Shown piece after piece: positions 527 through 64,000 of a DNA stretch of 64,000 nt. Positions within the stretch are counted from its first letter, which is position 1, and the number at the start of each line of letters is the position of its first letter. The DNA is taken from NCBI GenBank assembly GCA_002118135.1, contig BDIU01000361.1, positions 176 through 64,175 on the forward strand, given 5' to 3'. This stretch comes from Trebouxia sp. TZW2008. Its lineage: Eukaryota; Chlorophyta; Trebouxiophyceae; Trebouxiales; Trebouxiaceae. The position numbers and the translations under genes are program-made. The notes beneath the pieces were generated by a model, which was given only the letters and a program-made list of their open reading frames with translations, did no database searches and was not told where the DNA came from.

Positions 527-3500
527 TTACACTTTCTGCTGAAGAATTGTCAGACTGCCTCTGTTGCCGATTGAGATTTGCAGCTGCTCGTCAAAATATA
601 AAAAGTCTCTCCAGCCTTTCATGGGCTCAGGGAACTTCAACAGAATTTTGCCTTCTTCATCCTAAAATCATAACAGCCTTCATCAATATGATTCTGCATT
701 GCTTTCTCAAAGTATCGGCAAAATGGACCGTCAAAGGTGAGGAAACTGGATCAGCACTTGAGTCACACACCGCTCCAGAGCGTTTGGCTTATACTGGATG
801 CAGCTTGACAAGCAACTTTTGCAAACAGTGTCACGATGTTTTGGCTTCAAACAGCAAGTGCACTTCTTGGATTTTATTGCATACAGCATGCGGCAACCCT
901 CAGCTTTGTGCAAACCTTCCATGATAGCTTTCATGTTCATGCAACACTACTGCAGCATACATGCTTGTTGATAGACGTGCAGTTTGTGGCACAGACCCAC
1001 CATCTTGTCGTTTTCTTTCTGCATGACCTCCAGCCATTTCTGCTTTTCTGAGCTGTCTGAGGTTCTTGGCGCCAATGCCAACGCAGTAAAGCCAATCTGT
1101 GCCACAACAGTCGCTAACTGTCAAGTCACAGAATCCTGCTGTTGCTAAGAAAAGTCTACGCCGTTAGGCGTCACAACGAGAGCCTCTGTCTAAAGAGGCA
1201 ATCCGGGTCTGCTGTTGCTATCTGTTGCTGCCTTCGGGGTGTGATTTAGATAGAATTGCCAACAGACACGGTGTAGCAAACTTGCAGTGAAAGGTAGGAG
1301 CCTCACTGTGACAGGGTGAGCGTCGTGTGATCTTAGACCCATAGATCGTACTGAATGGCAAGTAACGGCCCCTACATTACACGTTGTCAGCTGCGAGACA
1401 CTGGCTGCTGCTACTGCCTTCAAAGGCCAAGGGTAGTCCCAGAGATACTTGGCAGTCAACTGTGTACAAGGACCTCTCCGCCCTTCCTGTCCAATATAAT
1501 TGGTTTTGTCCAATATAATTGATTTAGGTTAGCACATGGTTGAACTGGTTGGAGACAATTGATTGCTTCTGTACGTACCTAGTTGGGCCTGCTGAGCCTG
1601 CCTAGCCCACGTTCATACCCACGTTCATGATGAATCAATGAATGAAATGCCTTCAAAGCTTGACTGACAGCACTCACGGTGTGCTCAATGCAACACCGTG
1701 CCGAGACACTAGATCTGGCTCACGTCACATCATCGTGCTTTGGTCTAAGAAGTTCTTGCATGGATCCCAGTTGTTTTGATGCCCTGCCTGGTTCAGATAT
1801 GCCGCAGGCAACCAAGTTGAGTCCAGAAGTGCAGTTGGCGTGCAGTAAAAATTGAGGTGCAACAATGCGCTGCCTACTTCAGCTATGCTGCAGGCATTTG
1901 ACTCTGAGTTCAGGAGTGCAGTTGATAAGCAACAAAACCTGATGTAAAACAGTCCGCTTTGAATGTCTCTTAAGGTGCTATGTACCTTTTGCTTGGAAGG
2001 CTCTGCATCATCAACTGTGTAGTCACCAATGGTGGATTGCACTCCTTTGATGCCAGCCAGAGGCCCATCATGAAACTGCATAGCAACCAGCATGTTTGCC
2101 GAAGGTGCATCTCGGCATTCAGCTGCACCATACACTATACACCGGCATTGCCTAAGCAAGACGTGGCAGAAAGCATGCATAAGTGCAAGGCCATCAAGAC
2201 TTGGCATCAACTCCAGTTGGCTAGTGCGCAATGGTGGATTGCACTCCTTCGATGTCAGCCAGAGGCCCATCATGGAACTGCAGTCATCAATTGATTCACT
2301 ACATATGCTTGCTAGGCAGACTTTGAATGGCAGCAGCATGTACAAACACAGTCAACTGCCTCCATGCAAATTTGTCATGCAACTGCATAGCACCCACAGT
2401 GCGTAATGACCTTGAGGAGATTTGTTTCCATGACTCTGCTGCAAATCTCAGCAAGCATGTGAAGGGCGGGCATAATGACCCTGTACAGCAAGCATGACAT
2501 AGCAACTCTAATGCATTTGCCACAGTTAAGGGCACAGAATGTATAGTGCAGGAGAGATTTGAAATGGTTGTGCACGAGTGCATGATTCCCATGCCTTTGC
2601 AACTTGAATTGCAACATGCAAGGTGCCCAATCTGCTTTGAGCATGACCATCCAATGATGGTGAGCTTTTTGATCACAGTGATGATGATGAGTGATGGTGA
2701 AGCAGTGATGAGTGATGGTGAGTGATGATGAGTGATGGCGAGTGATGGTGAGTCATGATGAGTGCTGATGGTGAGTTGCTATGGTCAGAGTGAGTTGATG
2801 GTCTAGGGGAGACGCTGCTCACTGTGAATGGGATGTTGACTTGGTACTGATTGTGATACTCTTTGCTGATCAAAACCTCTGTCCCTTCAGCCTTGACCTG
2901 CACAGGCAAGAGAAGTGCTGCTTGACAATCTGAGTCTGCATGGCTCAAATTGCTGACACTATGCATTGACCATGCAGCGGTCTGCTTTGTGCAAAAGCAG
3001 TCTCACTGCCGTTGGTCAAGTCAAAAAAGAGGTAGGAAGGGTCATAACTTCAAGAATCCCTTCAGCCTTGACCTGCACAGGCAAGAGAAGTGCTGCTCGG
3101 CAATCTGACTTTGCAAGGCTTGGCTTGTGAGTGATCTGTGCAGCAACCTGCTCTGTGGAAGCTGAGTGAGCAAAACGTCAGGTCTGCCTGGCTAGCAAGA
3201 CAAGACAAACCGTCAGACGCTACAGAGCTATGTGCAGAACACCTGAATCTTTGCTGATCAGGATCTGTCTCCCTCCAGCCTGAATCTGCTGCACAGGCAA
3301 GAGAAGTGCTGCTCGGCAATCTGACTTTGCAAGGCTTGGCTTGTGAGTGATCTGTGCAGCAACCTGCTCTGTGGAAGCTGAGTGAGCAAAACGTGTTAGA
3401 TCTGCCTGGCTAGCAAGACAAGACAAACCATCAGACGCTACAGAGCTGTGTGCAGAACACCTGAATCTTTGCTGATCAGGATCTGTGTCCCTCCAGCCTC

Positions 3501-5273
3501 AATCTGCTACAAGCAAAAGAAGTGCTGCTCGGCAGTCTGACTCTGCGTGAACCAGACTGTCACCTGATTCCATGGTCTGACAGCCGTACATGAGCAGCCC
3601 GCAGCTCAGCATAAGGGCTTGACATCCTACAGCTGCAGCTGTCTGTGCAGCTGACTGTGCAAACCAGAACACAATGCGTGCAGCATCATCAACAGCAAAG
3701 AGACACAGATGCCTGCAACTCAGCATGGCTGCCATGTTACTATGGCCCAGCTTGCTTACCTTGAATGAGTTTGGCTTGAACTGCTTGAAGGAGATGGTGC
3801 CCAAGTCGCTGACTCCATCCTGAGACATTCTGTCTCCGAAATCACTCAAGACGCCCTTGAAAGTTCCAGTGATGCCCTCTTTGGTCAGCTGCACGACAGC
3901 ATTATGCATACTGAAGAAGAAGAACAACACTCATGAGGAAGAAGAAAGAGAACGATAGGAAGGGGAAGAAGAAAAAATTAAACCAAGACGCCCTTGAAGG
4001 TTCTGGTGATGCCATCTTTGGTCAGCTGCACAGCATCATGTGACCAAACAACACAAGAAGAAGATAAAGAAAACATGCAAAAAGCGGCAAAACACACGCG
4101 TATACACTCGCATACACGCATACACATGTGGGTGCCATGCAGCATGGCGTTTAGAGCAGCCTTGGCTTGTGAGCACACCTGCTTTCGGTCTTTGGGGCTC
4201 ACAGACTTCAGCTCTTCTACAAGGGTCTTGACCTCATCAGTCACCTCATTCTTCCTGTACAGCAATTACGCGGTGAGGGGCAAGCCACTTGTCCAGACAA
4301 TATTTGACTATCAATACTGCTGCTGCCAAAGGCCAAAGTAATGTGTTTGGTGCTTGACCATCAAGATTTGTTCCTTCTAGACGTGTCCTAGATAGGCTCA
4401 GCAGGCCCAGCTAGGTATGTACTGGAGCAATCAACTGTCCCCATCAAGATCATCAAGAGTGCTGCTGCCAAAGGCCAGGTTAAGGTTTTTGGTCATTGAC
4501 TATCAGCATTGCTGCTTGCTCAAGCCAGGTTAAGGTGATTGGTGTTGACCATTAATATTGCTGCCGCCAAATACCAAACTAAGGTGTTTGGTGCTTGACC
4601 ATCAACATTGCTGCCTCCACAGGCCAGACTAAGGAGATGAATGGTCGACTAGCATCATTGCTGTTGGCAAAGGTCAGACTAAGGTGGTTGTATGCATCAA
4701 GCCAAAATGCAGCATGTTATGCGAGTCACATTAGCTTTCTTACTCTGCAACCCTAGGGTCTGTGATGGCTGCCTTCAGGTGGACTGCAAACTGCTCTGAA
4801 TTCTCCAGTACTGCACTGCCATCTGGTGATGGTGGCTGAAGGCAACAGAACTGATCAGAACCACCCTTCCAGGCATGCAGTGAGCAATGGGCCAAAAATA
4901 GGTCAACAGGTCAATCAACCGGCCAGGGATACGCAGAGCATCACCTTGCCGGCAACCGGAGCTGCTGTCCTGTCGTTTGCGCGACATATATGCTTGCGAG
5001 AAGAGTCGCTGTGGAAGAACTCACGCTGCAGAGGCCTGCAGATGCCGTGATCAACGTGAACGTCTGGCAAGCGAAACGCTTGCGGATAACGCACAGCCTT
5101 TGCACGCAGATCGAAAAGCAATGCGAGCCAGAGGCCGCAAAAGATGACGGCACCTGCGAGGGGCACTGAATGCTTGTGCTCGCGAGTCTTGTGGCCTCAC
5201 AGCAGAGCAGACTTTGAACGGAACCTGGAAGCAGGCACAGCAGTGCACAATGATGCACGGAGGTATGAAACAT
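527..5273 (-). CDS. PAP/fibrillin-family plastid protein (8 exons, 313 aa)
   Basis: Probably a plastid lipid-associated (fibrillin) protein of plastoglobules or thylakoids, a lipid-binding family without known catalysis. Exons in transcription order: 5273-5025, 4835-4744, 4254-4179, 3888-3760, 2897-2823, 2075-1986, 1096-1001, 661-527. All junctions have GT-AG sites, phases agree, and the sum is 942 nt. The first exon (83 aa, Ser/Ala/Cys-rich, almost no acidic residues) looks like a chloroplast transit peptide. Its exact ATG (5273 or in-frame 5357) is the weakest point. The body has family-like order: a helical start (TDEVKTLVEELKSVSPKDR), a strand region (GTISFKQFKPNSFK), a middle GDYTVDDAEP, and the diagnostic C-terminal KGWRDFLYFDEQLQIS-GNRGSL block, comparable to KGW..TYLDE.LRI.RG..G.L. 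The family call comes from motif memory, not a search. It is divergent from the catalase. Introns carry several exon echoes. Confidence 0.75.
1148..1660. repeat. Dispersed repeat family A, long copy
   Basis: The copy lies in an intron of the fibrillin-like gene. Its left end (about 1148-1201, ttaggcgtca core and cctctgtctaaagaggc) recurs in reverse complement at about 42597-42650. Its right part (about 1465-1660, with tgtccaatataa, gttagcacatg, cttctgtacgt and gggcctgctgagcctgcct) recurs at 14930-15085 and in inverted form at 14745-14810, 42335-42400, 4390-4440 and 55160-55222. I see no coding capacity, so a non-autonomous transposon is the best reading. Exact ends and target-site duplications were not resolved. 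Confidence 0.6.
2226..2400 (-). repeat. Echoes of the 2075-1986 exon of the fibrillin-like gene
   Basis: Two decayed copies of the acceptor plus exon start lie upstream (in transcription) of the real exon. One at about 2282-2230 reads FHDGPLADIEGVQSTI against FHDGPLAGIKGVQSTI in the exon. A weaker one at about 2385-2360 keeps only the acceptor and a few codons. Both stay on the acceptor side. Confidence 0.65.
2676..2785. repeat. Degenerate GATGATGAGTG minisatellite
   Basis: Irregular repeats of gatggtgagtgatgatgagt in an intron of the fibrillin-like gene. There is no coding frame of interest. Confidence 0.8.
2998..3530 (-). repeat. Three upstream echoes of the 2897-2823 exon, including a ~225-bp tandem duplication
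   Basis: The true exon starts VKAEGTEVLISKEY. Acceptor-plus-start copies occur at about 3515-3465 (IEAGGTQILISKDS), 3297-3240 (IQAGGRQILISKDS) and 3080-3040 (VKAEG then divergence). The blocks around 3095-3260 and 3305-3480 are nearly identical for most of their length, so at least one duplication is recent. All lie on the acceptor side of the parent exon. Confidence 0.75.
3985..4036 (-). repeat. Echo of the 3888-3760 exon start
   Basis: The acceptor and first codons (LTKDGITRTFKGVL) copy the exon start LTKEGITGTFKGVL. The copy lies upstream of the real exon and then runs into unrelated A/T-rich sequence. Confidence 0.75.
4300..4710. repeat. ~55-bp minisatellite in the fibrillin-like gene intron
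   Basis: About six degenerate units contain attgctgc, aaggcca, ctaaggt and ttggtgcttgacc. The segment 4381-4445 inside it matches repeat family A (ggctcagcaggccc, taggtatgtac). No coding exon is seen here. Confidence 0.65.
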
Positions 5274-5893
5274 ACATTTCTGGTTGCGCAAAGCCAAGAT
5301 TTCGACCTGTCGAGTGCCGGCTAACGTCTGACTAGGATGCACGGTGAGTCCTTGCATGTTGGAGAGGAGTACACTCTGTCCTGTATACGCCAGATTGATC
5401 AAGAGAATTCTTTCTTGCGTTGTCAACTTTGTTGACCTTCAATGTCAGGGCTTCGTGATCGTTGTCGCATCTGCATGCGCGTTCTCGGCACAGCAGATGC
5501 GAGCGTTTCGGTAAAAGGAAGAGGTCCGGCCTTCACATTGAGTGAAGAAGAAGCGGCCGGACAGCTGGCACCTCTGACGTGGCCATGCTTTCATCACGTG
5601 CCGCAAATTCCATCACAAAATTTGGGTTCATCGAAAACCTTTTTTCGGCTTTTGCAGTACTTTGTGCATTACCCACGTAATACAAAATTTCCTGAATCTT
5701 CCGAGCGGGGCCATCGCCGGCGTGGCCTGTCAATCCTTTTGCTTCGCTGGCTGAATCTTTGTGATCTACAACATCGTTCTACACTCGCACATCGTGCTTG
5801 ATCCGTGTCTATCGATCCAAAATACTTGCGAACGATAGTAGGGTACAACCTATTCCCGCTAGCCGCGCGCGCTCGTAGATTTCCTAGTTCCTG
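5274..5893. promoter_or_regulatory. Divergent promoter region of fibrillin-like gene and catalase
   Basis: About 620 bp separate the two start codons. The region is richer in CpG than the introns. A perfect CACGTG box lies at 5595-5600 and a GACGTGG core at about 5577. ACGT-core elements are common in plant light and stress promoters, so shared control is conceivable but unproven. No clear TATA box was identified. Confidence 0.45.
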
Positions 5894-8800
5894 ATGGACC
5901 CATACAAGGTGCACTTTTGCGCGAACTGAGTCAATTTGCTTGCACAGTTGCAACTATGACAAACAGCTATAGCAGACAACCAATTATGCCATTTGTCCCT
6001 GCAGTTTCGTCCCAGCAACCATTTTGATGCCCCCTACTGGACCACAAACAGCGGTGTACCAGTATGGAACAACAACAACTCTTTGACAATTGGCAACAGA
6101 GGTGAGATCGTGATCACTGCAGCTCCTGCCGGTTCACTATTACCAACATGTACTGGCACACTGCACGTTATGAGCAAGGGTTCCTGAGCACACCTCAGTC
6201 ACCTTTGTGCGGTCTCATAGCACAATCAGTTGATGTCTTGTGCAGGGCCTGTGCTACTTGAGGACTACCACCTCATTGAGAAGCTTGCACAGTTTGACAG
6301 GGAGCGCATTCCGGAGCGTGTGGTGCATGCTAGGGGTGCCACAGCAAAGGGTTTCTTTGAGGTATGCTTTCCTATTGGCATGCCGTCTGATTGACTTAAA
6401 CAGTCCTTAACTTGTGCTATCATTGCTTCTGTGAGTGGTGGCACTGCTGCACTCGTCAGTATTGTGCATGCTCCATCACAGTGGAAAATTGTGTTCTCAG
6501 TAGCTCACTAGCATCAGCTTACAGTATTGTGCCATCGTTTCGCTTGCAAATTGATATAGACAGCAACTCACTGATGGTTTGAGATCGACACAGACAGCAA
6601 GTGACTGGTCTTGCAAGGTGACATAGACCGCGATTAACAGATGTCCTGGTGTGTGCTGCAGGTGACCCATGACATCTCACACCTGACTTGCGCAGATGTC
6701 TTCCGTGCACCAGGTGTGCAGACCCCAGTGATCACCCGTTTCTCCACTGTGATCCATGAGCGTGGTTCACCAGAAACCCTGCGTGACCCCAGAGGGTTTG
6801 CAGTCAAGTTCTACACCCGTGAGGGTAACTGGGATCTTGTGGGCAACAACATGCCAGTCTTCTTCATCAGAGATGGCATCAAGTTCCCTGACATGATTCA
6901 CGCCTTGAAGCCGAACCCCAAGAACCACATTCAGGAGGACTGGAGGATTGCAGACTTCTTCTCACATGTGCCAGAGGCAATGCACATGGTATGCTGCTGC
7001 AGCTTTGCATTGGCCTTTTGCCGTTTGTGCTGCATCATAGTTGTTGTATAGCCGGAGTTGTTATACGCTGAGCGGTTGTCAACTGTGTTGCGCTTGAGAA
7101 ATCTAAGCCATCTTATGGAGCAGCAGCTCAGGCCAGTTGTTCATGCTGACCAGCTGTCACTTGAGCATTCTGCATAGAGCAGTCCAGCCATCGAATGAGG
7201 CAGCAGCTCAGGACGTTATGTATATCTGTAATGTTTGCAGCAGCAGCTGGCTTTGTCTCAACAGTACATGTTGACGTAGCACATCCTGTTGAGTCCTTAT
7301 GTACTGTTGAGTCCATATGTACTGTTGATTCAAAGTCAGCTGCTGCTGCAAACTTGCCAGTCGTTGCTATGTCCTAAACTCATACAGCTCTTGCCTTTAC
7401 CTTGAATTGGTGTTTCAATGGTCAGGGAGCTGAGTTGCCTGAGCAGTTGGCATTGTGGGTGTTTGTCTACAGTGTTGGCGCGTACAGCATTTCTGTTAAA
7501 TAGTCATGAGGCATTTTTGCTGATCAAGCAGGCTGCATGGATGTGTCCTAATGATCTTTCATTGAGCCTGATATATCAGCACAATCTGAAGCACAAGAAG
7601 CAGAAGCTGCATTGCAACCACAATGACAGACCACATTCCTGCAAAAGGTTCTTGCTTTTCATTCAGGTCATGTTCTTGCAAGATGACACGGAAACGTCTT
7701 TGAGGTCTTTTGTGAGCTGCACTTCTTGTGTGCAAGATGCTGTTGCCTTTTCACTCATCTGGTTTGTGTCCTGCAGTTCACCTTCTTGCAAGATGACATC
7801 GGCATTCCCTTGAACTACCGCCACATGGAGGGCTTTGGAGTGCACACTTTCACCCTGATCAACAAGGAGGGCAAGATCACATATGTCAAGTTCCACTGGA
7901 AGCCCACCTGTGGTGTCAAGAACTTGCTAGAGGAGGAGGCTGTCCATGTTGGCGGCAGCAACCACAGCCATGCAACTCAGGTCAGTCACTCATAAGAGGA
8001 TACCATGTGCCTTCAATTGACATCTATTACTCATCTCATGATACAAAGCAGGCACTGTAGCCAAGCTATCTGAGCTGCAGTTGCAGCCATGTCAAGTGTT
8101 TCAGCAATCTTCTGTATTAACTGCAACACCTGGTCACCACAGGCTGCGCTGTATACACAGCATTTCTCAGAAACATTTCGCTGAGTAGAGGTTGAGACTC
8201 AGATTGCTGTGCTGACATGTTCGTGGCAGTCCAACTGACAGCTTTGCACCGGTGATTGCAGGACCTGTTTGAGTCCATTGCAGCTGGTGACTACCCTGAG
8301 TGGAAGCTCATGATCCAGACCATGGACCCTGCTGACGAGGACAAGTTTGACTTTGACCCTCTGGATGACACCAAGACATGGCCAGAGGACATCTTCCCTC
8401 TGCAGCCTGTTGGCCGCATGGTGCTTAACAAGAACCCTGACAACTTCTTCAATGAGAATGAGCAAGTGGCCTACTGCCCAGCGCTGATTGTGCCAGGTAA
8501 GCCGAGCTGTATAGAGCTAGTACTTTTTCCCCGCCACTTCCATGTGTACTTAGTTAGCTTCAACTTCTGCGCGGTGGTCGGCAAGAGTCTGCAGTCTTCT
8601 TCAATGTGAATGAGCAAGTGGTTTATTGCCCAGCGCTCATTGTGCCAGGTACTTTATGCAGAGCTTCATCTTGTCAGTCTTGGTCTCTCCATCGTGCTCA
8701 GCACAAAGTTTGACAACCACATCTTGTTTCCAAAATGTTGCAAGCAAATGGTCTTGCTGCGCTGCCTCAGCGTGTCAGGTCAATTTGTTGTCCGTCATCT

Positions 8801-11680
8801 ACAAGGGCTATAGACCTTGTCTCTGATGTGACTGATGCACACTGTCATTGACTTTGCATGACAAGGTGGCTTGCAGCTCATCAATTGCAGATGGAATTTT
8901 CTTCTCAGGAACTGTTTGCTCAGGCAAATATGAGGATTTTAGCAAGTGTCAGCATGCACCCTTAAAAAAAACAGGCTGTGCTTGCGCTCTCTAATCACTT
9001 ATGGTTTTTTGCTAACTCTGCCCTCTGGCAACACTTGCGTCCCAGTGCGCTGCTGTCAAAAGGGCCGGGCTAGGACAGAGCAAGATGGCTTCTCAGCACA
9101 CATAAGCCTGTTCTGTTCTTTGATGCTCTGGGACTGCTCAGCTACTTGCTGTGCATTGGTCATGGCTCGATTGTCACATGCTTCACCCAAGTGGCATTGC
9201 AGAGATGAGCTTGCAGGAGCAGAACACACTCCAATGGTCTATCTGTTCAACTCCTGCAGATCATCTCTGCAGTGCCACTGAAGGTATGTAACTGTCAGCT
9301 CGTGGCTGATGTCCCCTGCTGTGAGTTTGCTTGGATAGCTATGACGCTGGCAGGTCTTAAGCTGAGTCACCACTGCAGCCATTACGGTGTTTGCAAGATG
9401 TGCCAGACCTTGATCTGTTGCTCTTTGACACCCAGGATGCATGCAGTGCTATTGCAAGCATGCCTTGGGTTGAGACCAAGTTGAGCCAGTGCTGCTGCTT
9501 GATTGCCGGCATTGTGCATTGTGATGCAGATGCTGCAAACTTGTGTTCTTGACAACAACGTCCCCAGGCCCTATGCCAGATTGTGCTTGGTGCTGGCTCA
9601 CGCCAGGCATGTCATGACTTTGCCTTCAGCTAATCAAGTGCTGCTGCTGCTGCAGGTATTGGCTACAGTGATGACAAGATGTTGCAGACGCGTATCTTCA
9701 GTTACGCAGACACTCAGCGGTACAGGCTGGGACCCAACTACTTGATGCTGCCAGTCAATGCACCCAAGAATGTGCACCACAACAACCACCACGATGGGGT
9801 CATGAATTTCATGCACAGAGATGAGGAGGTGGGTTTGAGCTTGTTGTGCTGCACCATATGTTTTGCAACATGCGTCAGTCCATTCTCTTTTGCTATGTGC
9901 TTGCTTGCAAGCAAAGTGCATTACTTGCAAGCAAAGTGCATTACTTGCAATGTTACACTACGCACAATAGCATATGTTGCTCTGTTGTTGTGCTCACTTT
10001 GCTTCCAATGTCATGCTCTACACAGCAGCACATGTTGCCCCATCTTGATTTGCGATTGCCTACGATCTCCTCAGGCTCATCAAAATGCCAGACCCTTTCT
10101 TGCAGCAAATTCACTTTTGTGGATTTGTTTTGTGAATTTGCTGCAAGAAAGGTTTCAAGCGATTTTGTGGAATTGGAGATTGCAAGTCATGGATTTCACA
10201 GATTGTGAGCCATTGCTGTGCACGTTTCTGTCATGACTGTGAAATGGCATTTACATGATTATTTTCCTGTTTTGAATTGCATGTTGCTGCCATGGTGTCG
10301 TGCTTTCAGCTGACTGTCATTCATCTATACACCTGCAAGTCATGAATCTCACAGATTGTGAGCCATTGCTGTGCACGTTTCTGTCGTGACTGTGAAAGGG
10401 CATTTACATCATTATTTCCTATTTTGAATTGCATGTTGCTGCCATGGTGTCGTGCTTTCAGCTGACTGTCATTCACTTATACACCTAGCATGCTTGCATG
10501 CCTGCAAGCTCATTTTGAGTGGCATGCCTGCAAGCTCATTTTGAGTGGCATGCCTGCAAGCTTAAATTTCAAAGTGACTTGCCTGCAAATTGGTACTGAA
10601 CTCGTATGCATGTACCAAGTTGCCATGCACTTTGCAGATCAATGGAATAACAATGTTGTGAACAGACTTCCCTACTTCCCATCCCGCTTTGACCCAGCTA
10701 GGCACTCAGTGCCTGACCCCTTTCATGGTGTCTCGGCCCAAGCTGACAGTCATCCTCACAAAGTTCAGCACACAGCAAGCCTGCATGCAAGCTCAAACCT
10801 CCCTTGCTGCACAGGTCAACTACTTCCCATCCCGCTTTGACCCAGTCAGGCACTCAGCGCCCTACCCCTACCAGAACATGAAGGCCTCAGGCAACCGTGT
10901 GAAGGCCAACATCAGCAAGGAGAACAACTTTGCTCAGGCTGGTGCTCGCTTCAGGAGCTTTGATCCTGCCAGGCAGGACCGGTTCATCAAGAGGATAGCT
11001 GGCATGCTCACCGCTCCTCGCGTCACACAGGTGTGTTTGCTGGGCTCAACTTGAGCTGTACCTTGTGCAGTATGTATCATTCGGGCATCATGTGCGTTTT
11101 GGCTGAGATGTCTCTCCATGTGTCACACAGGTGTGTTGTTGAAACTGTTTCTGCATTGTGTTACACAGTTCCTAGCAACACATAGTAACACATAAATCCA
11201 CCTATATGAGCATATGCTCGCCTGTATGCTTTGCATTTTGTTGCATCAGTGCCTAGCTGTCGACTTGGGCAAGAGCTTGTCTTTGATATGTCTGCCATGT
11301 GCACCTGGTGCCTGCTTCGTATGTCTGCTCTTGGTCAAGAACTCAGCAGGCAATATGCTGCATGTTCAGATCTCAGGCCAGCGCAATTAAACAAGCAGAT
11401 GTCTGGTTACAGCATGGCTGGCAAGTCATTGTTGACAAATGGCTCAACTGCTTGTTACCCTTCTCTGCTGTGATTCTTTGTGACAGGATGCAGTTTGCCT
11501 TGTTTGGCTACAGCTGCAATTGTTTATCCCTTGCACTAGCAGTTTTGTCAACATCAGCTGATGTTTTGTGATTGTTTGATGCAGGAGGTGCGACGTGTAT
11601 GGTTGGGCTACATGTCCCAGTGTGACAGCACCTTGGGTCAGAAGTTGGCTGCCAAGGTTCAGGCTAGTGGACAGATGTAG
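5894..11680 (+). CDS. CAT: Class-I (plant-type) catalase, 9 exons, 492 aa
   Basis: Haem catalase that dismutates H2O2 to water and O2, normally in peroxisomes. Exons: 5894-5908, 6005-6101, 6246-6361, 6662-6988, 7777-7980, 8262-8496, 9656-9828, 10815-11030, 11585-11680. The sum is 1479 nt, giving 492 aa, exactly the plant length. The start is fixed by the 5-codon first exon MDPYK, as in plant catalases. Catalytic His65 ([11 protein letters not shown]) and Asn138 ([11 protein letters not shown]) and the haem-ligand Tyr348 ([14 protein letters not shown]) are all present. QKL at positions -13 to -11 matches the internal peroxisomal signal described for pumpkin catalase; the C-terminus itself (SGQM) is not a classic SKL. 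Several introns hold echoes of adjacent exons. I see no defect. Confidence 0.97.
7667..7697 (+). repeat. Echo of catalase exon 5 start
   Basis: An acceptor-like cag followed by TTCTTGCAAGATGAC copies the start of exon 5 (7777), about 105 bp upstream of it. A weaker copy follows at about 7720-7740. The echo is on the acceptor side. Confidence 0.7.
8602..8655 (+). repeat. Echo of catalase exon 6 end with its donor
   Basis: The copy covers the exon 6 tail ([16 protein letters not shown]) and its GT donor, about 150 bp downstream of the true donor at 8497. It lies on the donor side. Confidence 0.8.
10094..10152 (+). repeat. Perfect 21-bp inverted repeat, 17-nt loop
   Basis: Arms 10094-10114 and 10132-10152 are exact reverse complements, with the core ttgcagcaaattcac. 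It sits in catalase intron 7 and would form a strong hairpin in the pre-mRNA. It could be a foldback duplication or a small-RNA precursor; no further sign of either is visible. Confidence 0.85.
10181..10489 (+). repeat. Two-copy 153-bp tandem duplication in catalase intron 7
   Basis: Two nearly identical units begin at 10181 and 10334 (tgcaagtcatg, gattgtgagccattgctgtg). They are followed at 10497-10565 by three short units with catgcctgcaagctcattt. Purely intronic. Confidence 0.9.
10655..10735 (+). repeat. Echo of catalase exon 8 start
   Basis: The segment reads [18 protein letters not shown] against [18 protein letters not shown] at the start of exon 8 (10815). It lies upstream, ends abruptly after about 65 nt and cannot replace the exon. 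A short copy of the exon 8 end (gtcacacaggtgtgt) lies downstream at about 11120-11135. Both are on the expected sides. Confidence 0.85.
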
Positions 11681-12920: not shown

Positions 12921-51532
<38,612 letters not shown>

Positions 51533-53437: not shown

Positions 53438-54043
53438 TCATGACCTACCTCTATAGTAACATTGCAAGTAGGAAACAAACTCGTCGAGAAGGTCGTAATG
53501 AGGCATGCATAAGTCTGGAACAGCCGAGACCCAGTCGAGGTTCAAGTGATCTTTGACCACGACTCTGCATGAGTACTCCAAGGGGCCTCCAAATGTATCC
53601 CCTGTGAACTTCGGAACATGTGTTTGATGCCTTTCTTGTGACTGCCTGTAACTGTCCAAACACATACAGAACACATATGCGTGGTCCCATTGGTCTTGAC
53701 TGACATGAATTGTCTGTGTTGCTCGGAAATATGCACCAGAACACCAGTCATACTCGATCAGGTGAGGTGCTGCATACTCTATGCTCGATGGGCTGAGGGC
53801 TTGGCTGTCTGCAGTCTTCAATGCCAGCCTGTGACCTGGCTTTGCCAAAAATTCGCTGCTCGATACACCACATATTACATCTTGACCCCACTCATCTTTA
53901 CCCATGTACACAAAGTCTTCAGGTAGCCAACTCACTGGTTCAGTGAAGGCTGCGCGGTCGTGCCACAACTCGGCAAAGCTCGGCATACGGTCACTCGCAG
54001 GCTTTGCAAACTCCAGAAACCCATCGTAGTTAGCTAAGCTCAT
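53438..54043 (-). CDS. Unrecognised protein, 201 aa, apparently intronless
   Basis: An open frame from the ATG at 54043 (MSLANYDGFLEFAKPASDRM) to a TGA at 53440-53438. Composition looks globular and coding-like: Trp/Tyr-rich, acidic (DFVYMGKDEWGQDVICGVSS, HLIEYDWCSGAYFRATQTI). No signal peptide or membrane segment. I do not recognise the family. The last codons overlap a good donor (AGAG then GTAGGT at about 53450), so the gene may continue in further exons and the 201-aa form may be truncated. Divergent, 491 bp from the next gene. Confidence 0.65.
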   Translation of the reverse strand: MSLANYDGFLEFAKPASDRMPSFAELWHDRAAFTEPVSWLPEDFVYMGKDEWGQDVICGVSSSEFLAKPGHRLALKTADSQALSPSSIEYAAPHLIEYDWCSGAYFRATQTIHVSQDQWDHAYVFCMCLDSYRQSQERHQTHVPKFTGDTFGGPLEYSCRVVVKDHLNLDWVSAVPDLCMPHYDLLDEFVSYLQCYYRGRS

Positions 54044-54534
54044 AATCGCTGTCAATGTTCACGCCGAGAGCTGCGCAGCAGCAGCAGCAGCAGCTACGTC
54101 CCAGCGTCAGGCTTGTAAGACATCACAGCCGAGCATCTTGAGGCAATGGTATTGACATTCGCAAACTCGACGAGTGACGGGCCATCAAGCAGATAGAGCG
54201 CTGACGCGTCGGTCGTTGGTGATCGAGTCAGGTCGACGATACGAGAGGAAGCGTACTTCTGCTTCTCTTCCGGTACTTTAGAGTTCTTTGTGCACGTGCG
54301 CCCTGACTGGACGTGACTCATCCTTGAGTGATACCAAGGCTGGTGTCCGCTGTCGCAGGCAACACATCTCTGTGACGCGTTTAGACGCAAGCGCGCGGGT
54401 TTCAGCAACCGACATCACAAGCGTCAAGCGGCATCATGCTGCAGAGCGGATTTTGCTCCACGGCGCACTGTAGTCTTTGCGGCTATTATACAGCATAGCT
54501 GTACTTCACGCCCACCCAGTACGAAGCTGCAAGG
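54044..54534. promoter_or_regulatory. Divergent promoter region, CpG-rich
   Basis: The 491 bp between two divergent ATGs are rich in CpG relative to the introns and include gacgcg/cgcgt motifs. A tattata element lies at 54484-54490, 45 bp before the plus-strand ATG; with a short 5' UTR it could be a TATA box. This is positional inference only. Confidence 0.4.
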
Positions 54535-57500: not shown

Positions 57501-60500
57501 AGCTGCAGCCCAACATTGGTCAGGCTGTTGCATTGCTCAAGTTCCTTCCAGTCTGTGTAGACTTGTACAACGCAGAGGTGGCAGACTGTGCTGCGCTGCA
57601 AGGAAGTAGTCAAAGCATCTGCATCTGGTGCTCATACTGGGACGAAGTATGCCAGTGCATCAGCCAGATAGTGGTCAGGCCGCTACATTGCTCTGGTCCA
57701 TGCTGTTCTTTCTAGACTTGTACAATGCAGAGGAGTCAAATTCCTTGCGCTTCAATGACTTTTAGTCAATGCAAATGCGGCTGGTGGTTCATATTGGGAA
57801 GAATTGTGGCAGTGCGTCAAACTGATGACAATCAGACTGTAGCATTGCTACAGTTCCTCCACAATGACCATGCAGTCTACATGCAGAGGGTGGTGCTGAT
57901 GGGCTGTAGTCAATTGTAGTCAATGCATTTGCAGCCAGTGTGCATACTGCCATAAACTCTGGCAGTGCCTCAGCCCCATATCAGACTGTTGCATTGCTCA
58001 AAGCCCTTCCAGGCTGTGTAGACTTGTACGATGTACAGGTGGCAACTTGTCCTGCAATGCAATGAACGATGAATGCATCTGCGGCTGGTGCTCGTGCTGG
58101 CAAGAGTTGTGGCAGTACGTCAAGCTGACAATGATCAGACTGTCCCATTGCTCCAGGACCTTGCCAAATGGCCACGCAGCCTGAATGCAGAGGCTCTGCA
58201 GTGCTGCAACATACCTTGGTCAATGCATTCGCAGCTAGCTGAAACTATCAATCATGAACTATCGCATCACGCTGGTTCCTTCCAGTATGGCTAGGTAGTC
58301 TAAATGCAGAGGCTTCTTCTGCTGTGCTGTAATGTGCAACTGACGCTTCGTCAAGTTCTGGGCAGCTGCATCAGCCCTTGTTTGTCAAAGTGCTGTAGCT
58401 ACCAAGGTTGACCCCAGCCTCAACCAATCTGCACAATGAAGACTAGTTCTGCTGCGCTGCATCATGCCACTAACTCTCAATCGAGCTCTGGGCAGCATTT
58501 CCTCCCTTTTAAGGCTCTCTCAAATTGCTTTGAGCTTGTGAGGCATGACTACCCTCACCATTCAGCTCTTGCCTTCAATTTGTCGAGATGGGTGCTGTCG
58601 ATTTACGCAACCAACTAGGATACTGTGTTGGCATAGAATGGCGTCGGACAGACTTGATTGTAGGCAGCCAGTACTCCTGTACGCAATTAGCCGGGTCATA
58701 CAACCTCACTAGGATGCATATAGATGATGATGACCCTGCTGCTGCTGATGATGATGCTGATTTTGATTGATTGATTGATTGCAGGCCCGAGTCTGAGGAG
58801 TACCCAATCTACCTCTTCACTTGGCAAGATTCTGCATCAGCCTCATGGTGCAACCCATAGAGCCATCAAGGGGCATCGCACACATGGCAGTCAGACAGCC
58901 CTCACCTTCCTCTCAGGAGGCTGGAGCCCCAGCAGCCCTCACCGCATTCCCAGGGCTCTTGAAACAGCCCCTAGGGCTATAGCCCCTCCCAGCGCGCTTG
59001 AAATAGCCCTTGACATCACTCAGAGCGCCCCTGCTGCGGACGGGCTGTTGGCCAACGATGGACCACAGGAGCAGTCACATGGTTCACATATTCTGCCACA
59101 TGGGCCTGGCAGCTGGCACGGGAAATCAAACCTGGGATTCAAGTTTGCCCCTGGTCATGGGGGTGCCCAAGGGGGTGTTTGGGGGCGGGACAAGGGGTTC
59201 CAGGATGCTTCAGAGGCCCTAGCAGGGCTCAGGTATGGCAAATTTCTCCACTGTGAGCAATTTAAAACTGTAGAATCAACATTTTGACAATGCAAACTTT
59301 TGGTACTACCGATGCAAAGCTTACATAAAAGGTCACCCTGTGCATCAAGGCTGGTGTACATCATGCCAATGCTGCTAGTGATGCATTGCAGGCTCTCAAC
59401 CTTTAGATCATTTTAGTGCATACAAGAAATTTGCTATTAGCCAGTGTGTTGATAACACCTACTTTGGGCGCGACTGCTCAGTAACTACAGTAATCTCAGG
59501 TCTCAACATTTGTCAGGCCTCATCATTTGCTCAGCATGAAGATTTGAAAGCTGGCATGAGCAAGGTCAAGTCAGAGAAGCAGTCTTCATATGCGACCTTG
59601 TGCTGTTGCAGGTTACACAGGCGTTCTGGGGAGTATCAGAGGGAACCCGTGCTTCCTTGCATCTCAGAAGGCAAGCCCTCCCAGGATTCAGCTGAAAGGG
59701 GGGTGCCAGGGGGCTACACCAATCGGGCCCCTCCTGCCATGGCTGCCTTGTTGGACAGTGCTGCTCAGAGTGCTTCGTCGCCTCATCAAGGTAGGCCTAC
59801 TTCTTCTTGCTTCTGTGTAATTGCTGTAACATAACAGCACATGCATTCCAGAAGGCAAGCTCTCCCAGGATTTGGCTGACAGGGGGATGCCAGGGGGCTA
59901 CCCTGACCGGCCCCCACTGCCATGGCTGCCTTGCTGAACAGTGCTGCTGAAAGTGCTTCATTGCCTCATCAAGGTGAGCTTCACACTTGCCTGGCTCATG
60001 TGAATTGCTCTACAAGCAGTCTTTGATACCTTTACAGATAGTGTGAACTGTGGCAGGTACAGCTGGTATTGCAGCACGCTGTCACAGCCTCCGCGCTCCA
60101 AACTAAGTGCAGTGCTGTGCGCATTCGTGTTCAGATGTGTGGTCGTTGCCCAGTCTTGCTGGCTCCTTTGTGTATTGTGTATGCGTGTCATGGCACTTAC
60201 TGTGTACGCCTCTTTGTCAAGTCTACATTCCTCATTGGATGCTTTTGTGCATCAACGTTTTCAGACATGCAGTTGCTCTGTCAGTAGCCTCACGTCCAGT
60301 CAAGGTTGCTCGTTTCATACTTGCATGACTGTGTATGGCTTGGTCGTGTACAGTTCAAATCGGTACAAATACCACATGCTGCTGGCCCATTCAGCCATTC
60401 AGCATGGGCTGTAGTCTACATTTGGTCAGAAGTCATGTCCTCGTCCCTTCTGGGTTGTTCCGTCAACATGCCTTTTGACTGCTTTGCAGGCATGAAGAGG

Positions 60501-60686
60501 ATCTGCAGTTCCCCTGAAGTGGGCGACAGCAACATTTTGCTGCATCCAATTCACAAGGTGACCCCCAAGGGTAGCCCAAGCCAGCCCTCATCCCCCAAGC
60601 GGCTTCACACACACCACGGACCCATCCCCAGCCTGTTGACTGGCAGATCACCTCTGCCCAGGTTTGGCTCTCCTGTCAAAGTTTGA
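54535..60686 (+). CDS. Ser-rich protein with possible fascin-like N-terminus (6 exons, 706 aa)
   Basis: Exons: 54535-54805, 54956-55115, 55773-56638, 58785-59232, 59612-59790, 60490-60686. All have GT-AG sites, phases agree and the sum is 2121 nt. Residues 1-150 (GRQQFWTVQQGGALRLGDAS, GSVWLRAATGGIVCSNSQGE) suggest a beta-trefoil/fascin-like fold, an actin-bundling or carbohydrate-type fold; this is a weak call from repeat flavour. The remainder is low-complexity, Ser/Pro/Gln-rich and probably disordered. RKVSF at about 201-205 matches the RVxF docking motif for protein phosphatase 1 and a basophilic kinase site. At the end of exon 3 a second frame (NRVVDIKSMEHAYT) also looks coding, so an extra exon or different splice may exist there. 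Function unknown. Confidence 0.5.
55160..55222. repeat. Repeat family A fragment
   Basis: Degenerate copy (ggctcgatgggccctgctag, gtacatactgaagcaatca) in an intron of the Ser-rich protein gene. Confidence 0.5.
55430..55765 (+). repeat. Four to five ~85-bp echoes upstream of exon 3 of the Ser-rich gene
   Basis: Units contain cttgcacatcataacatggggtctttgcattttca variants, near 55455, 55540, 55620 and 55705. They match the start of exon 3 (LMKGLAHHTVP; aagggcctggcacatcac). Acceptor-side position as in the other genes. Confidence 0.75.
56830..58430 (+). repeat. Array of ~200-300-bp units without an identified parent exon
   Basis: About seven units share cttccagtctgtgtagactt, gtacaatgcagagg, tcaatgcatttgcggctgg and catactg. 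Each contains an acceptor-like ttccag followed by VDLYNAEVA-type codons. In the other genes such arrays flank a real exon, but the flanking exons (ending 56638, starting 58785) do not match. A missed exon may lie in or next to the array. Confidence 0.65.
58730..58783 (+). repeat. GATGATG / TGATTGATTGAT simple repeats at an acceptor
   Basis: Simple sequence immediately before the acceptor of exon 4 of the Ser-rich gene (gattgcag ending 58784). The upstream block 58588-58770 has an open frame with an acidic end but no usable donor, so I did not call an exon. Confidence 0.6.
59848..59975 (+). repeat. Donor-side echo of exon 5 of the Ser-rich gene
   Basis: A copy of the last ~120 nt of exon 5 (cctcccaggatt, gccagggggctac, gcctcatcaag then GT), downstream of the true donor at 59791. 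Downstream position fits the rule. Confidence 0.9.
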
Positions 60687-61993
60687 CAGCCAAATACCCC
60701 AGAATGAGGTTCCAATGGGACTCAAGTTGCAAGCTGGAGAGCCAAAATCTCACAGGCATACGCTTGTGGAACCAATTTTTGTTGGGATGCAGATGACAAG
60801 CTGGGGCTTGCTCGCTTTCCAGCAGAAATTTTGGGCGGGTCCAGCAGCTTGCTGGCTCCTGGCATACTGTTCTAGTCCATGCAGCTGACTTAATTCACCT
60901 CAGATGCTAACACATGGAGTGTTGTCAGAGTGGTCTCTGCACCTGAATGCTTTCACCTTAGCTGATGGCCAATGGCGAAGAGCGGCATGTGCCAAAAGCC
61001 AAGTCCAAGCAGTAGTCATTCTCACAGAGAAGGCAATGTTGCCTATACAGGTCAAAGTGAGGTCATTGCTGTTACACAGTTGCAGTGTGGGTCATTTGCG
61101 TGCATGCACAAAACGGCTGCGTTTGGCATGTTGTGCTGCCATCATACACATGTCTTTGACCATAGAATAGTTCTTGTAAATGTGTCCTGTACGGACTTGC
61201 TGTTGTGAGCAAATGCTTTTCTGGTATGATGCTTCAGTATTGCAGTTTCACACTGAACAGGCTGTCAGCATGTTGTTTGTGTAATGGCTGTGTACTTGTC
61301 TTCAGCATGGCAAGTGCCATGTTATATCTTTTCATGTTATACCTTTCATAGTAGCGGGCGTAGGTCCTGCAGTCAAATTTTTGAGATTGAGTGTTGATGA
61401 TTATTGGCTTGATGAGTTATGATACAGTTGGCTGTTTGACACTTGCATCAAATATATGGCAAACTGCTGTGTAGCTAGAGTGATATTTGAAGTGTCGCAG
61501 TGTCAAATTGAATGCTGGGCATGTAAAACGGTACTGGTAAATTCTTGAGGGCTGTGCAAGTTTGTGGCAAGAACTACTGTAATTTTGTGATGAGCAGCAG
61601 TCAGTTTGAAGTTTTCGCATGCACACCTTGCACGCTTACATGTGCACTGAAAACAGGAGTGTTGTGCATCTGCTTGTGCCATTTCTTAGCACAAATTTTT
61701 GGCCTGCAAGATAAAGGTTTGTGCACATGGCAGCCACGGGCAAAACGAGCTCTGCAAGCAGGGAGGAAGCCAAATGAGTAGGCCATCGGCAAGCTGCTAA
61801 TGTTCTTGCGCTCTGAGGACTGCTGGTTGCAGCACAGGACAGACGGGCAGCATCGCGCAAGATACCAGGCTTGCGGCTCGGTGGGTGGCTCTGACGCATA
61901 CTCTGATGACGCCAAGATCTTGATCATCTGATAGGATTTGCAGTTGAGTTTCAGCCACAGCCAAGCAAGGCGCACTGCGATCGTTTCTGACAG
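60687..61993. other. Intergenic region between tandem plus-strand genes
   Basis: Holds the 3' UTR of the Ser-rich gene and the promoter of the TRP-like gene. TGTAA motifs at 61175-61179 and 61280-61284 are candidate poly(A) signals. The last ~200 bp before 61994 are CpG-rich, like other first-exon regions here. At about 60690-60735 there is a short echo of the terminal exon. No gene recognised. Confidence 0.5.
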
Positions 61994-64000
61994 ATGGAAG
62001 ATGTCGATGTGCCTCTGCTGCGCCAGCAAGGCGCTGAACAGGACAGAGCAGACGGGCCCGAAGACCTTGAACGAGGCCTAAGTCAAGGAGCCGGTCAGGA
62101 CTTCAGACATCTCATCGATTCTCAGCCTGAAGCTGTCATCAAGTAAAGCTTGTACATTACCGTTAGCTAAACGTACGCATCGACATCTCCCGATGGCTGC
62201 AACATAATGGCACATGCTTGCAGATTCTTGGAAAAGAAAGGCATGAAGCAATTAGGGAGCTTCACAGTCCCGGTACATTCCTATCAATGTGTCATTGGTC
62301 TGCCTTGCCCACAAATGTTATGCTGTCTAGACGCCAATCTGCCCCCAACAGTACACAATGTGCCTATCACAATGAGCATGCTTCAACAGATTCAGTAGTG
62401 GCATGTATTGTGCTACACTGCCACAACATACATTGCATGGATTGCCCATATTGCGCTTACACGCGTTGATGACTGATTTGATGACGTCCTGTGAAGGGAA
62501 CTGCAACCACTTGAACGCCTCAAATATCTGAAGCTGTCTTGATGATGTTTCTGGGCACTACATACAGGATACTGCAGTGCTGCCTCTCATCAGAGGCACA
62601 GGAATGCTGACACTAGGCAGCCAGCGTACTGACATTGATTTTGAGTCCACATGGCGGCGCAAGATGCAGGCATTCACTGACCCCTTACATGCCCCAAACA
62701 AGCCCAAAGGTAACAAGCTAAAAGACATACTTCATCTCAACGGCAGGTATTAGCATGCTGAATCCAGGCAGCCAGAATTGTGACGTTGATTTTGAGCGAA
62801 CATGATGGCGCAAGATGCAAGCATTCATTGACCCTTACATGCCCCAAACAAACCCGAGGGTCAACTCGTAGTAATCAAGTACAACTGTCACAAATCGCAG
62901 CACATGTGTTTAGTGTGTGCAGCCCAAGCTTATGAAATTCAATGGCAAGCATAAATCCCCGGCACCCTGTTTTCTCTCCAGCCGCAATCTGGAAAGACAG
63001 GCAGACTGGCTATGCCATCATTGTGCAGGCTGGAGGGGAAAGGTTGGGATGGAAGCACATGTGGTGACCATCAGCAATGCAGCTGAGGCAGATGACTCAG
63101 GACTGTTGAACCCACATCTCCTTGTGACCTGCCTTCTTCTTCCTCCAGCACTTCTTCTTCCTTCTCCTCTTCTTGCCCAACTTTTTTTTCACTCCGTTTT
63201 GCAGGCTGGACTGGCAAGATTGAGGTGGAAGCGCATGTGGTGACCATCAGAAACGCAGCTGGGGCAGATGACTCAGGGCTGCTGAACCCCCTCTTGAAAA
63301 GGTGGCAGGACAAGGCTTGCTCACAGATGGTCTTTGGCTTGCCTGCCGTGCAGTCAGTCATCAACTTCAAGTGGGATAGGTGAGTGCATGGTGTTGGTTA
63401 CCTCAGAGCAAGCATTGACAATGTAGCAGCCTGAAAGGAATCAAAGTGCGCTGTTGCCCACATGGGGAATGTAGCTGTTGCACCTGAAGGCAATGACAGA
63501 ATGCAAAGCAGGCAGGCCAAATACCACCTGAAGGATGCTCTTTGTGGTGCAGGACTTCCCCTGTCTACCCTTTCAAAGCTGTCTGCATGAACAGGCACTG
63601 CAACGCACAATGTGCTCTTGGCTGCTCTGCTTGCTTTCCGCTTTGTCGCCAGTTTCAGGCGCAATCAAGCATCCAATGCAGGTGTTGGACGTTGCCAAAT
63701 ATTGAAGAACGTGCCAGAGGTTGACTTTTGTGCAACAAGCTGATTGTGAATGCTGCATGCATCTTCCTCATGCGTTCATGCAGATGAGACTACCCTGCCT
63801 GCTATCTGTTGAGTCATTGAGTATCATTTGAAACAATCTTGAGCTGCTTTTGCTCACAGAGGCTCGCGTTGCAATGCCTGATGGGGTTTCTGTTTTCATT
63901 GCAATCTGGACAAAGGCTTGTTCAGTCAGAAAGCTGCATGCACACTCCTGTCACGCAGGTGGGCTAAGAAGCTGCTGCTGCTGGAGTTTGCTTTCTACAT
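61994..64000 (+). CDS. 5' part of a probable TRP-like/ion_trans channel protein (partial)
   Basis: Exons: 61994-62142, 62224-62272, 62568-62709, 63205-63379, 63959 to the window end, all GT-AG with consistent phases. The N-terminus (MEDVDVPLLRQQGAEQDRAD) is acidic and hydrophilic with no signal peptide. The last visible part (MVFGLPAVQSVINFKWDRWA, then KKLLLLEFAFY) resembles the segment just before S1 in algal WD40/ankyrin-associated TRP-type channels, where 'PAVQ..I..KW' leads into the first membrane helix. If right, the protein is a cation channel with its pore domain outside the window. The call is family-memory based and no pore is visible. There is no N-terminal ankyrin array; the gene model could miss exons before 62568. 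Confidence 0.5.
62748..62870 (+). repeat. Donor-side echo of exon 3 of the TRP-like gene
   Basis: A copy of the exon 3 end (ggcagccag, gattttgag, ggcgcaagatgca, catgccccaaacaa) downstream of the true exon (62568-62709), with substitutions and a stop in frame. Confidence 0.9.
63019..63116 (+). repeat. Acceptor-side echo of exon 4 of the TRP-like gene
   Basis: A copy of the acceptor and the first ~90 nt of exon 4 (AHVVTISNAAEADDSGLLNP against AHVVTIRNAAGADDSGLLNP), lying upstream of the true exon at 63205. Confidence 0.92.

What the first reader, a model, noticed from the sequence alone, without database searches (positions are those of the whole stretch)
527..63116. Polarity rule for exon echoes: 5' exon edges are duplicated only upstream, 3' edges only downstream
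In five unrelated genes I find roughly 60 decayed partial exon copies inside introns. Every clear case with acceptor plus exon start lies upstream of its parent exon; every case with exon end plus donor lies downstream. Exon 17 of the GNOM-type gene (27.8-29.1 kb) shows both on either side. The simplest explanation is recurrent local tandem duplication of ~100-300-bp segments spanning splice junctions, where only the arrangement that keeps one intact exon in the mRNA survives. If general in this genome, it is a continuing mechanism of intron growth that constantly supplies decoy splice sites and raw material for new exons. I know of individual tandem exon duplications, but not of a genome where nearly every exon carries a directional trail like this.
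Basis: partly seen in the sequence, partly recalled or inferred. Interest (0 to 1): 0.88.

Follow-up and report, generated by a model that had tools for sequence, protein, structure and literature searches.

The report
One-sided exon fragments in algal introns
Introns of a lichen alga hold many worn partial copies of the neighbouring exon, nearly always on the side that simple head-to-tail duplication predicts, so exons act as frozen markers of a duplication process that has lengthened introns.

Summary
The window is Trebouxia-like nuclear DNA (68.5-Mb assembly). A self-trained gene finder on 242.6 kb (window plus 178.6 kb of four other contigs) gave 176 testable exons. Copies holding the acceptor edge lay upstream 55 times and downstream 4; copies holding the donor edge lay downstream 31 times and upstream once. 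Three of these 5 wrong-side copies come from exon calls that are themselves copies. An outgroup GNOM protein, used without the gene finder's calls, shows the same. Random head-to-tail duplications in simulation give this polarity (636/636 and 600/601) with no preference for side; dispersed copies do not. So the polarity is geometry: a signature of tandem duplication across one splice junction. Copies drift about neutrally while the parent exon stays constrained, so exon edges are the visible part of a general process that makes arrays of about 150-bp units without detectable preference for exons. It is patchy: 27 of 39 exons in the window have a copy, 35 of 138 elsewhere. Few arrays look young, so "continuing" is unproven. 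Single events of this kind are published; my searches found no bulk directional record.

The parts
6005..11676 (+). Catalase gene, eight exons used as parents (6005-6101, 6246-6361, 6662-6988, 7777-7980, 8262-8496, 9656-9828, 10815-11030, 11585-11676)
   Evidence: PDB and Trebouxia/Coccomyxa catalase matches; gene finder
8597..8650 (+). Exon-end copy of catalase exon 8262-8496, downstream
10673..10747 (+). Exon-start copy of catalase exon 10815-11030, upstream
7656..7700 (+). Short acceptor-edge copy upstream of catalase exon 7777-7980 (read by eye, not in the counted tables)
   Evidence: sequence
12924..51532 (-). GNOM-type ARF-GEF gene (Sec7 family), at least 22 homology-supported exons
   Evidence: Trebouxia sp. 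C0004 protein P0121 82%, Myrmecia P0123 57%
28279..28442 (-).
28499..28930 (-). Three acceptor-edge copies upstream of exon 28279-28442 (28499-28603, 28667-28783, 28841-28930)
27944..28234 (-). Two donor-edge copies downstream of exon 28279-28442 (28139-28234, 27944-28033), with donor GT kept
34962..35653 (-). Copies upstream of Sec7 exon 34693-34893: four with the exon start (35012-35110, 35183-35275, about 35320-35445, 35561-35653) and one match to its middle (34962-35054)
37968..38401 (-). Acceptor-edge copies upstream of exon 37660-37862
36127..36237 (-). Exon-start copy upstream of exon 35915-36077
48146..48451 (-). Acceptor-edge copies upstream of exon 47854-48069, unit 189 bp
18589..19103 (-). 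Acceptor-edge copies upstream of exon 18275-18399 at spacings about 140, 281, 422, 554, 701
19777..20350 (-). Acceptor-edge copies upstream of exon 19535-19662 (one called as an exon by the gene finder)
19391..19495 (-). Exon-end copy downstream of exon 19535-19662
25546..26066 (-). Donor-edge copies downstream of exon 26129-26363 at spacings 137, 263, 400, 536
24334..24950 (-). Array of whole or partial copies downstream of exon 25033-25170
22862..22939 (-). Exon-end copy downstream of exon 22990-23183 (a start copy at 23198-23281 lies upstream)
30055..30129 (-). Donor-edge copy downstream of exon 30212-30432
48707..49015 (-). Whole-exon tandem pair (48707-48838 and 48884-49015), unit 177 bp, 94.6% identical, both open with AG/GT
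10181..10486 (+). Two-copy, gapless tandem duplication inside a catalase intron, unit 153 bp, 94.2% identical
59842..59975 (+). Exon-end copy downstream of exon 59612-59790 (unidentified gene)
63021..63113 (+). Exon-start copy upstream of exon 63205-63379 (unidentified gene)

Best explanation
Head-to-tail duplication of segments of about 150 bp (mostly 90-200 bp) has happened many times in this Trebouxia genome, at places with no detectable preference for exons. When the segment spans an acceptor, the product reads intron-exonstart-intron-exonstart-rest-of-exon, so the incomplete copy must lie upstream of the complete exon. When it spans a donor, the incomplete copy must lie downstream. The intact exon stays in use and constrained, and the truncated copy becomes neutral intron sequence. 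Because the parent exon hardly changes, exon-holding units stay recognisable longer than pure intron units, so exons look as if they were the target. Shown: tandem layout, polarity, near-neutral decay, lack of detectable targeting, unit size. Inferred: that the spliceosome ignores the copies, and the molecular cause of the unit size (perhaps nucleosome- or Okazaki-sized replication or repair intermediates).
For: Polarity 55:4 and 31:1, and 12:1 and 7:0 with an outgroup protein. Random tandem duplications give 636/636 and 600/601 on the observed side; dispersed copies give 346 up to 219 down and 271 down to 269 up. 242 direct against 11 inverted local pairs (under 3 kb), with 9 direct and 10 inverted distant pairs within blocks. 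Spacings in multiples of one unit, e.g. 140, 281, 422, 554, 701. Gap to the nearest copy: median 30 bp (negative where an array holds more units), 60 bp or less in 34 of 49. Divergence of copy from parent at codon positions 1, 2, 3 is 0.128, 0.097, 0.236, while intron parts differ by 0.21: one constrained and one neutral branch. 20 of 58 arrays detected from non-exon sequence touch (within 10 bp) or span an exon, against 21.7 +- 3.7 to 28.3 +- 3.7 expected for random placement. Unit length is the same with and without an exon, medians 152 and 147.5.
Against: Density varies greatly (0.9% to 34% of a block covered), so placement is not uniform over the genome. Five wrong-side copies, two of them unresolved (46041-46252 in the window; C100 4690-4891). 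49 BLAST hits between blocks (20 of them window-C40) show that some sequence is shared between blocks; I did not ask whether these are array units. No RNA evidence that the copies are skipped. Exons in C1, C40, C100 and C160 come from a self-trained gene finder.
Confidence: 0.88

Rival explanations
1. One reading: duplications arise in both arrangements and selection removes the wrong one.
For: Duplications wholly inside an exon would break the protein and must be removed, so selection does act on part of the spectrum (inference).
Against: The observed polarity appears in simulation with no choice of side; a tandem duplication across one junction has no mirror arrangement to remove.
Confidence: 0.07
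2. The copies are used, or kept, as regulatory decoy splice sites or alternative exons.
For: 48 of 55 acceptor copies keep AG and 41 of 55 score above the 10th percentile of real acceptors. One whole-exon pair is open with intact sites.
Against: Dinucleotide retention of 71 of 86 is about the 0.76-0.82 that I derive for a neutral branch from codon positions 1 and 2. The codon-position pattern shows constraint on one side only. Donor copies are weaker (16 of 31 above the 10th percentile).
Confidence: 0.08
3. A dispersed element (introner, transposon or one satellite family) inserted next to exons.
For: Repeat units of similar length in many introns; 49 hits between blocks.
Against: 242 local direct pairs against 9 distant direct pairs within blocks. 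The counted units contain part of the local exon.
Confidence: 0.03
4. Assembly or gene-model artefact.
For: Parents outside the window rest on a self-trained model; some exon calls were copies.
Against: Edge copies differ from parents by 5-35%, which misassembly does not make; parents in the two main genes are set by proteins of other species.
Confidence: 0.02

Closest known systems
Tandem duplication across an intron-exon boundary in a potato RdRp gene (Ma et al. 2016, PMC4974935; passages found by term, some from its abstract)
   Different: A single event in which the copy became a new intron/exon; here there are dozens, with decayed copies lying inside introns.
[quoted passage not shown] review Yenerall and Zhou 2012, PMC3443670, passages; Drosophila cases Lehmann et al. 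2010, PMC2891723, abstract)
   Same: Local tandem duplication remodels exon-intron structure.
   Different: That model duplicates an exonic proto-splice site (AGGT) to make a new intron; here existing introns grow and no new intron is shown.
Internal gene duplication (Gao and Lynch 2009) and introns from tandem arrays (Zhuo et al. 2007): titles seen in a reference list; papers not held
   Same: Duplications spanning exon-intron boundaries, tandem arrays (from titles, a citing passage and recall).
   Different: Not read; no directional record recalled.
Intronic minisatellites and nucleosome-sized satellite units (recalled)
   Same: Head-to-tail arrays; unit near 150-180 bp.
   Different: Arrays here are mostly short and strongly diverged, and the counted ones hold part of their own local exon.

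Membership tests
Local tandem duplication | Copies in direct orientation and adjacent | tested here: met
   242 direct v 11 inverted local pairs; gap 60 bp or less in 34 of 49 nearest copies
Local tandem duplication | Truncated exon copy on the intron side of its junction | tested here: met
   55:4 and 31:1; 12:1 and 7:0
[quoted passage not shown]
   No RNA and no orthologous DNA held; no case shown
Tandem (mutually exclusive) exon duplication | Whole exon duplicated, both copies open with splice sites and used | tested here: inconclusive
   One pair fits in sequence (48707-48838 / 48884-49015); use of either is untested; most copies are partial
Introner or other dispersed element | Same sequence in many introns | tested here: not met
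   Within blocks 9 distant direct and 10 distant inverted pairs v 242 local; 49 hits between blocks, not sorted into arrays or other sequence
Functional alternative exons | Copy under coding constraint | tested here: not met
   Divergence 0.128/0.097/0.236 at codon positions with intron 0.21 fits constraint on the parent only (averages over the counted edge copies; single copies could differ)

The most novel reading that the evidence does not exclude
Trebouxia has, or recently had, a genome-wide mutational process that makes head-to-tail duplications limited to about one nucleosome or Okazaki fragment in length (median 151 bp; 80 of 91 arrays below 200 bp), and this process is a main source of intron length in affected genes. 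Constrained exons serve as built-in, directional clocks that record it.
Probability: 0.33. Interest if true: 0.72.

Novelty: new variant of a known kind. Interest (0 to 1): 0.52.

Why it matters
The side on which a truncated exon copy lies tests, without any other species, whether local duplications are tandem or dispersed. Because the parent exon is nearly frozen, each copy dates its own duplication on one neutral branch. That makes how introns lengthen a countable question. It also warns annotators: gene finders, mine included, call some of the copies as exons.

Tried and rejected
1) An automatic chain of protein hits as parents misplaced GNOM exon 17. With the Myrmecia protein it gave start 11 up / 2 down, end 5 down / 2 up, whole 3 down, start-like 1 up / 1 down, end-like 2 up; with P0124, P0121 and P0122 it also gave a few wrong-side cases (for example P0121: start 17 up / 2 down, end 9 down / 1 up). 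I replaced it by 22 curated exons. Their limits were partly set by hand, and low-complexity or unclear exons of the gene were left out. 2) A first test of exon targeting seemed to show strong enrichment next to exons (17 of 55 within 10 bp against 1.1). The null was wrong: masking exons cuts any overlapping array at the exon. With arrays allowed to overlap exons there is no excess. In the unmasked data 61 of 91 arrays overlap exons against 41.6 expected; I put this down to better detection of constrained sequence, which is an inference. 3) A sharp 150-167-bp peak: 25 against 12.6 from a lognormal fit, p 0.0013, but the range was chosen after seeing the data, so it is a hint only. 4) Microhomology at unit edges: too few young arrays; one was looked at by eye. 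5) No relatives' DNA is held for this genome, so copies could not be dated against species splits. 6) Paper searches (CC-licensed PMC only; listings seen) showed no description of bulk directional exon fragments. The Trebouxia A48 genome paper (PMC12712428, passages found by term) holds 'tandem' 0 times and 'intron' once.

Rows dropped before counts: gene-finder exons below score 9 and non-internal exons (177 kept, 176 scanned); 'inner' and 'intron' classes are not in the polarity table; matches with both edges are counted as 'whole'. In the simulation, duplications that broke the exon were discarded and loci ending with more than one intact exon (72 tandem, 45 dispersed) were left out. The six catalase exons were in the gene finder's starting set, so their recovery is no test of it.
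Full report
WHAT THE SEQUENCE IS. The window lies in a 68.5-Mb, 527-contig eukaryotic assembly. Its catalase is 95% identical to that of Trebouxia sp. C0009, 85% to a protein labelled Astpho2/Aster (Asterochloris, by its label) and 84% to Coccomyxa sp. Obi. Its GNOM-type ARF-GEF is 82% identical to Trebouxia sp. C0004, 88% over 79% of the query to Trebouxia sp. C0005, and 57% to Myrmecia. Size and GC content fit published Trebouxia genomes (PMC12712428, passages). The exact species is not known to me.

HOW I TESTED IT. I trained a small two-strand exon model on the window plus 178.6 kb of contigs C1, C40, C100 and C160. Its starting set was long open frames plus six catalase exons found against solved catalases. 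Its GNOM exons were then largely borne out by proteins of other species, though it also called some copies as exons. Internal exons scoring 9 or more (177; 176 scanned) were compared, with 200 bp of flank, against 2.5 kb on each side. A copy was said to hold an edge only if at least 10 bases on both sides of that edge lay in the match.

RESULT. At E<=1e-4, acceptor-edge copies: 55 upstream, 3 overlapping, 4 downstream. Donor-edge copies: 31 downstream, 1 overlapping, 1 upstream. Whole copies: 5 downstream, 5 overlapping. The same search on the reverse complement gave 10 hits, none with an edge. Counted by distinct parents: 31 acceptor-up against 3 acceptor-down, and 18 donor-down against 1 donor-up. 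By block, acceptor-up/donor-down: window 27/11, C40 11/7, C100 9/13, C160 8/0, C1 0/0. The wrong-side cases come from four exon calls. Two of these (20274-20335 and 35391-35444, three copies) match the same part of the GNOM protein as a longer exon nearby and are themselves copies; the other two (46041-46252 and C100 4690-4891, one copy each) are unresolved. Four further copies on the plus strand (two in catalase, one each at exons 59612 and 63205) stop within 8 bases of the junction, count as 'inner', and lie on the predicted side.

CHECK WITHOUT THE GENE FINDER. Searching the window with the Myrmecia GNOM protein finds each of 22 exons and, nearby, weaker matches to the first or last part of many. 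With 22 curated parent exons, 13 have such copies: start copies 12 up / 1 down, end copies 7 down / 0 up, whole 2 up / 3 down, 1 end-side up, and 1 hit without a parent. The single 'start down' belongs to an array of near-whole copies at 24.3-24.95 kb. With the Trebouxia protein P0121: start 20/1, end 11/0, whole 2 up / 3 down, 2 side classes up, 6 without a parent. For catalase (8 exons) the Trebouxia protein shows one end copy down and one start copy up, the Coccomyxa protein one end copy down. In two genome-wide family scans I read pairs of nearby hits to the same profile part by eye. P-type ATPase (73 matches): C87, C119, C169, C193 and C392 obey the rule, C318 probably. Kinesin (157 candidates, 122 scored, list cut): C79 obeys clearly, C157, C33 and C193 if exon limits are inferred from neighbouring hits. 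Several other pairs were ambiguous and left out; I saw no clear wrong-side pair. At C392 a run of 183-bp units carries the exon end again and again downstream of the exon.

WHY THE POLARITY IS AUTOMATIC. A head-to-tail duplication of a segment that starts in an intron and ends in the next exon yields intron-exonstart-intron-exonstart-rest. The only contiguous exon is the second, so the truncated copy is upstream. The donor case is the mirror image. In simulation random tandem duplications gave 636 acceptor copies up and 0 down, 600 donor copies down and 1 up, with the sole condition that exactly one intact exon exists; dispersed insertion gave 346 up / 219 down and 271 down / 269 up. The polarity is therefore evidence for tandem duplication and not for selection between arrangements.

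SUPPORT FOR TANDEM LAYOUT. Local repeats are 242 direct and 11 inverted. Copies sit at multiples of a unit, such as 140, 281, 422, 554, 701. The gap between parent and nearest copy has a median of 30 bases and is 60 or fewer in 34 of 49 cases; in the other 15 it is larger. Within blocks few pairs lie further apart (9 direct, 10 inverted). Between blocks there are 49 hits, 20 of them window-C40, which I did not sort further.

NEUTRAL DECAY AND THE FROZEN-PARENT EFFECT. Copies differ from parents at codon positions 1, 2 and 3 by 0.128, 0.097 and 0.236, while intron parts differ by 0.21. That is what one constrained parent and one neutral copy would give. Splice dinucleotides survive in 48 of 55 acceptor and 23 of 31 donor copies (22 of 31 by the second mapping), close to the 0.76-0.82 that I derive from positions 1 and 2. 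Alignments are selected to span the junction, so this is biased upward. Acceptor copies remain strong sites (41 of 55 above the 10th percentile of real ones) and donor copies less so (16 of 31). Arrays recognised from non-exon sequence alone touch or span an exon in 20 of 58 cases, against 21.7 to 28.3 (sd 3.7) expected: no detectable targeting, if anything a slight deficit.

UNIT SIZE, SPREAD AND AGE. 91 arrays have a median unit (smallest spacing per array) of 151 bp (bootstrap 140-158); 57 lie at 120-200 and 80 below 200. Short units are under-detected, but long ones should be easier to see, so the upper limit is likely real. Longer introns hold more repeats (rank correlation 0.23, 215 introns). 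Coverage by local repeats is 34% in the window, 17% in C40, 12% in C100, 4% in C160 and 1% in C1, so the window is a hot spot. Best identity per array falls from 24 arrays at 80-85% to 2 at 95-97.5% and 0 above. This speaks against vigorous present activity, unless new copies are deleted quickly or collapsed in assembly. Against that, exact direct repeats of 106 and 89 bp (window) and 70 bp (C100) exist, so some arrays hold recent or converted patches, and identities pooled over several units understate the youngest pair.

KNOWN OR NEW. The single event is known: a potato gene carries a tandem duplication of an intron's 3' side plus the next exon's 5' side (PMC4974935, passages). A review calls tandem genomic duplication the only proposed route of intron gain shown in vivo (PMC3443670, passages). 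I did not find a description of bulk, directional, decayed exon fragments (searches listed under Tried and rejected). I therefore call it a new variant of a known kind. Steps shown: layout, polarity, near-neutrality, placement, unit size. Steps inferred: splicing ignores the copies; the cause of unit size; contribution to intron length genome-wide (the sample is 0.35% of the genome).

Noticed in passing
48707-49015 (-): Whole-exon tandem pair in the GNOM gene, 94.6% identical, both open with AG and GT; each exon is 124 nt, so including both would shift the frame: candidate mutually exclusive exons.
   Followed up: partly
L020 (C392:165001-170000, - strand): P-type ATPase gene with a run of about nine 183-bp units repeating the exon end (a 243-aa stop-free stretch crosses several), plus a second array of 159-bp units upstream.
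   Followed up: partly
45874-46780 (-): Array inside the GNOM gene that may be partly translated in Trebouxia (matches to P0121 residues 259-358) but has no match to the Myrmecia protein in that search.
   Followed up: no
18300-20350, 30550-33700, 43000-44900: Long arrays in and around GNOM introns, up to about 3.2 kb; the 43.0-44.9-kb one has a spacing of about 315 bp, unlike the usual 150.
   Followed up: no
window, C40, C100, C160, C1: Duplication density differs more than 30-fold between sampled blocks (34% to 1%); the cause is unknown.
   Followed up: no
acceptor v donor copies, all blocks: Acceptor-edge copies are more frequent and keep stronger sites than donor-edge copies (55 v 31; AG 48/55, GT 22/31); perhaps weak selection against decoy donors; no significance test was run.
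   Followed up: partly
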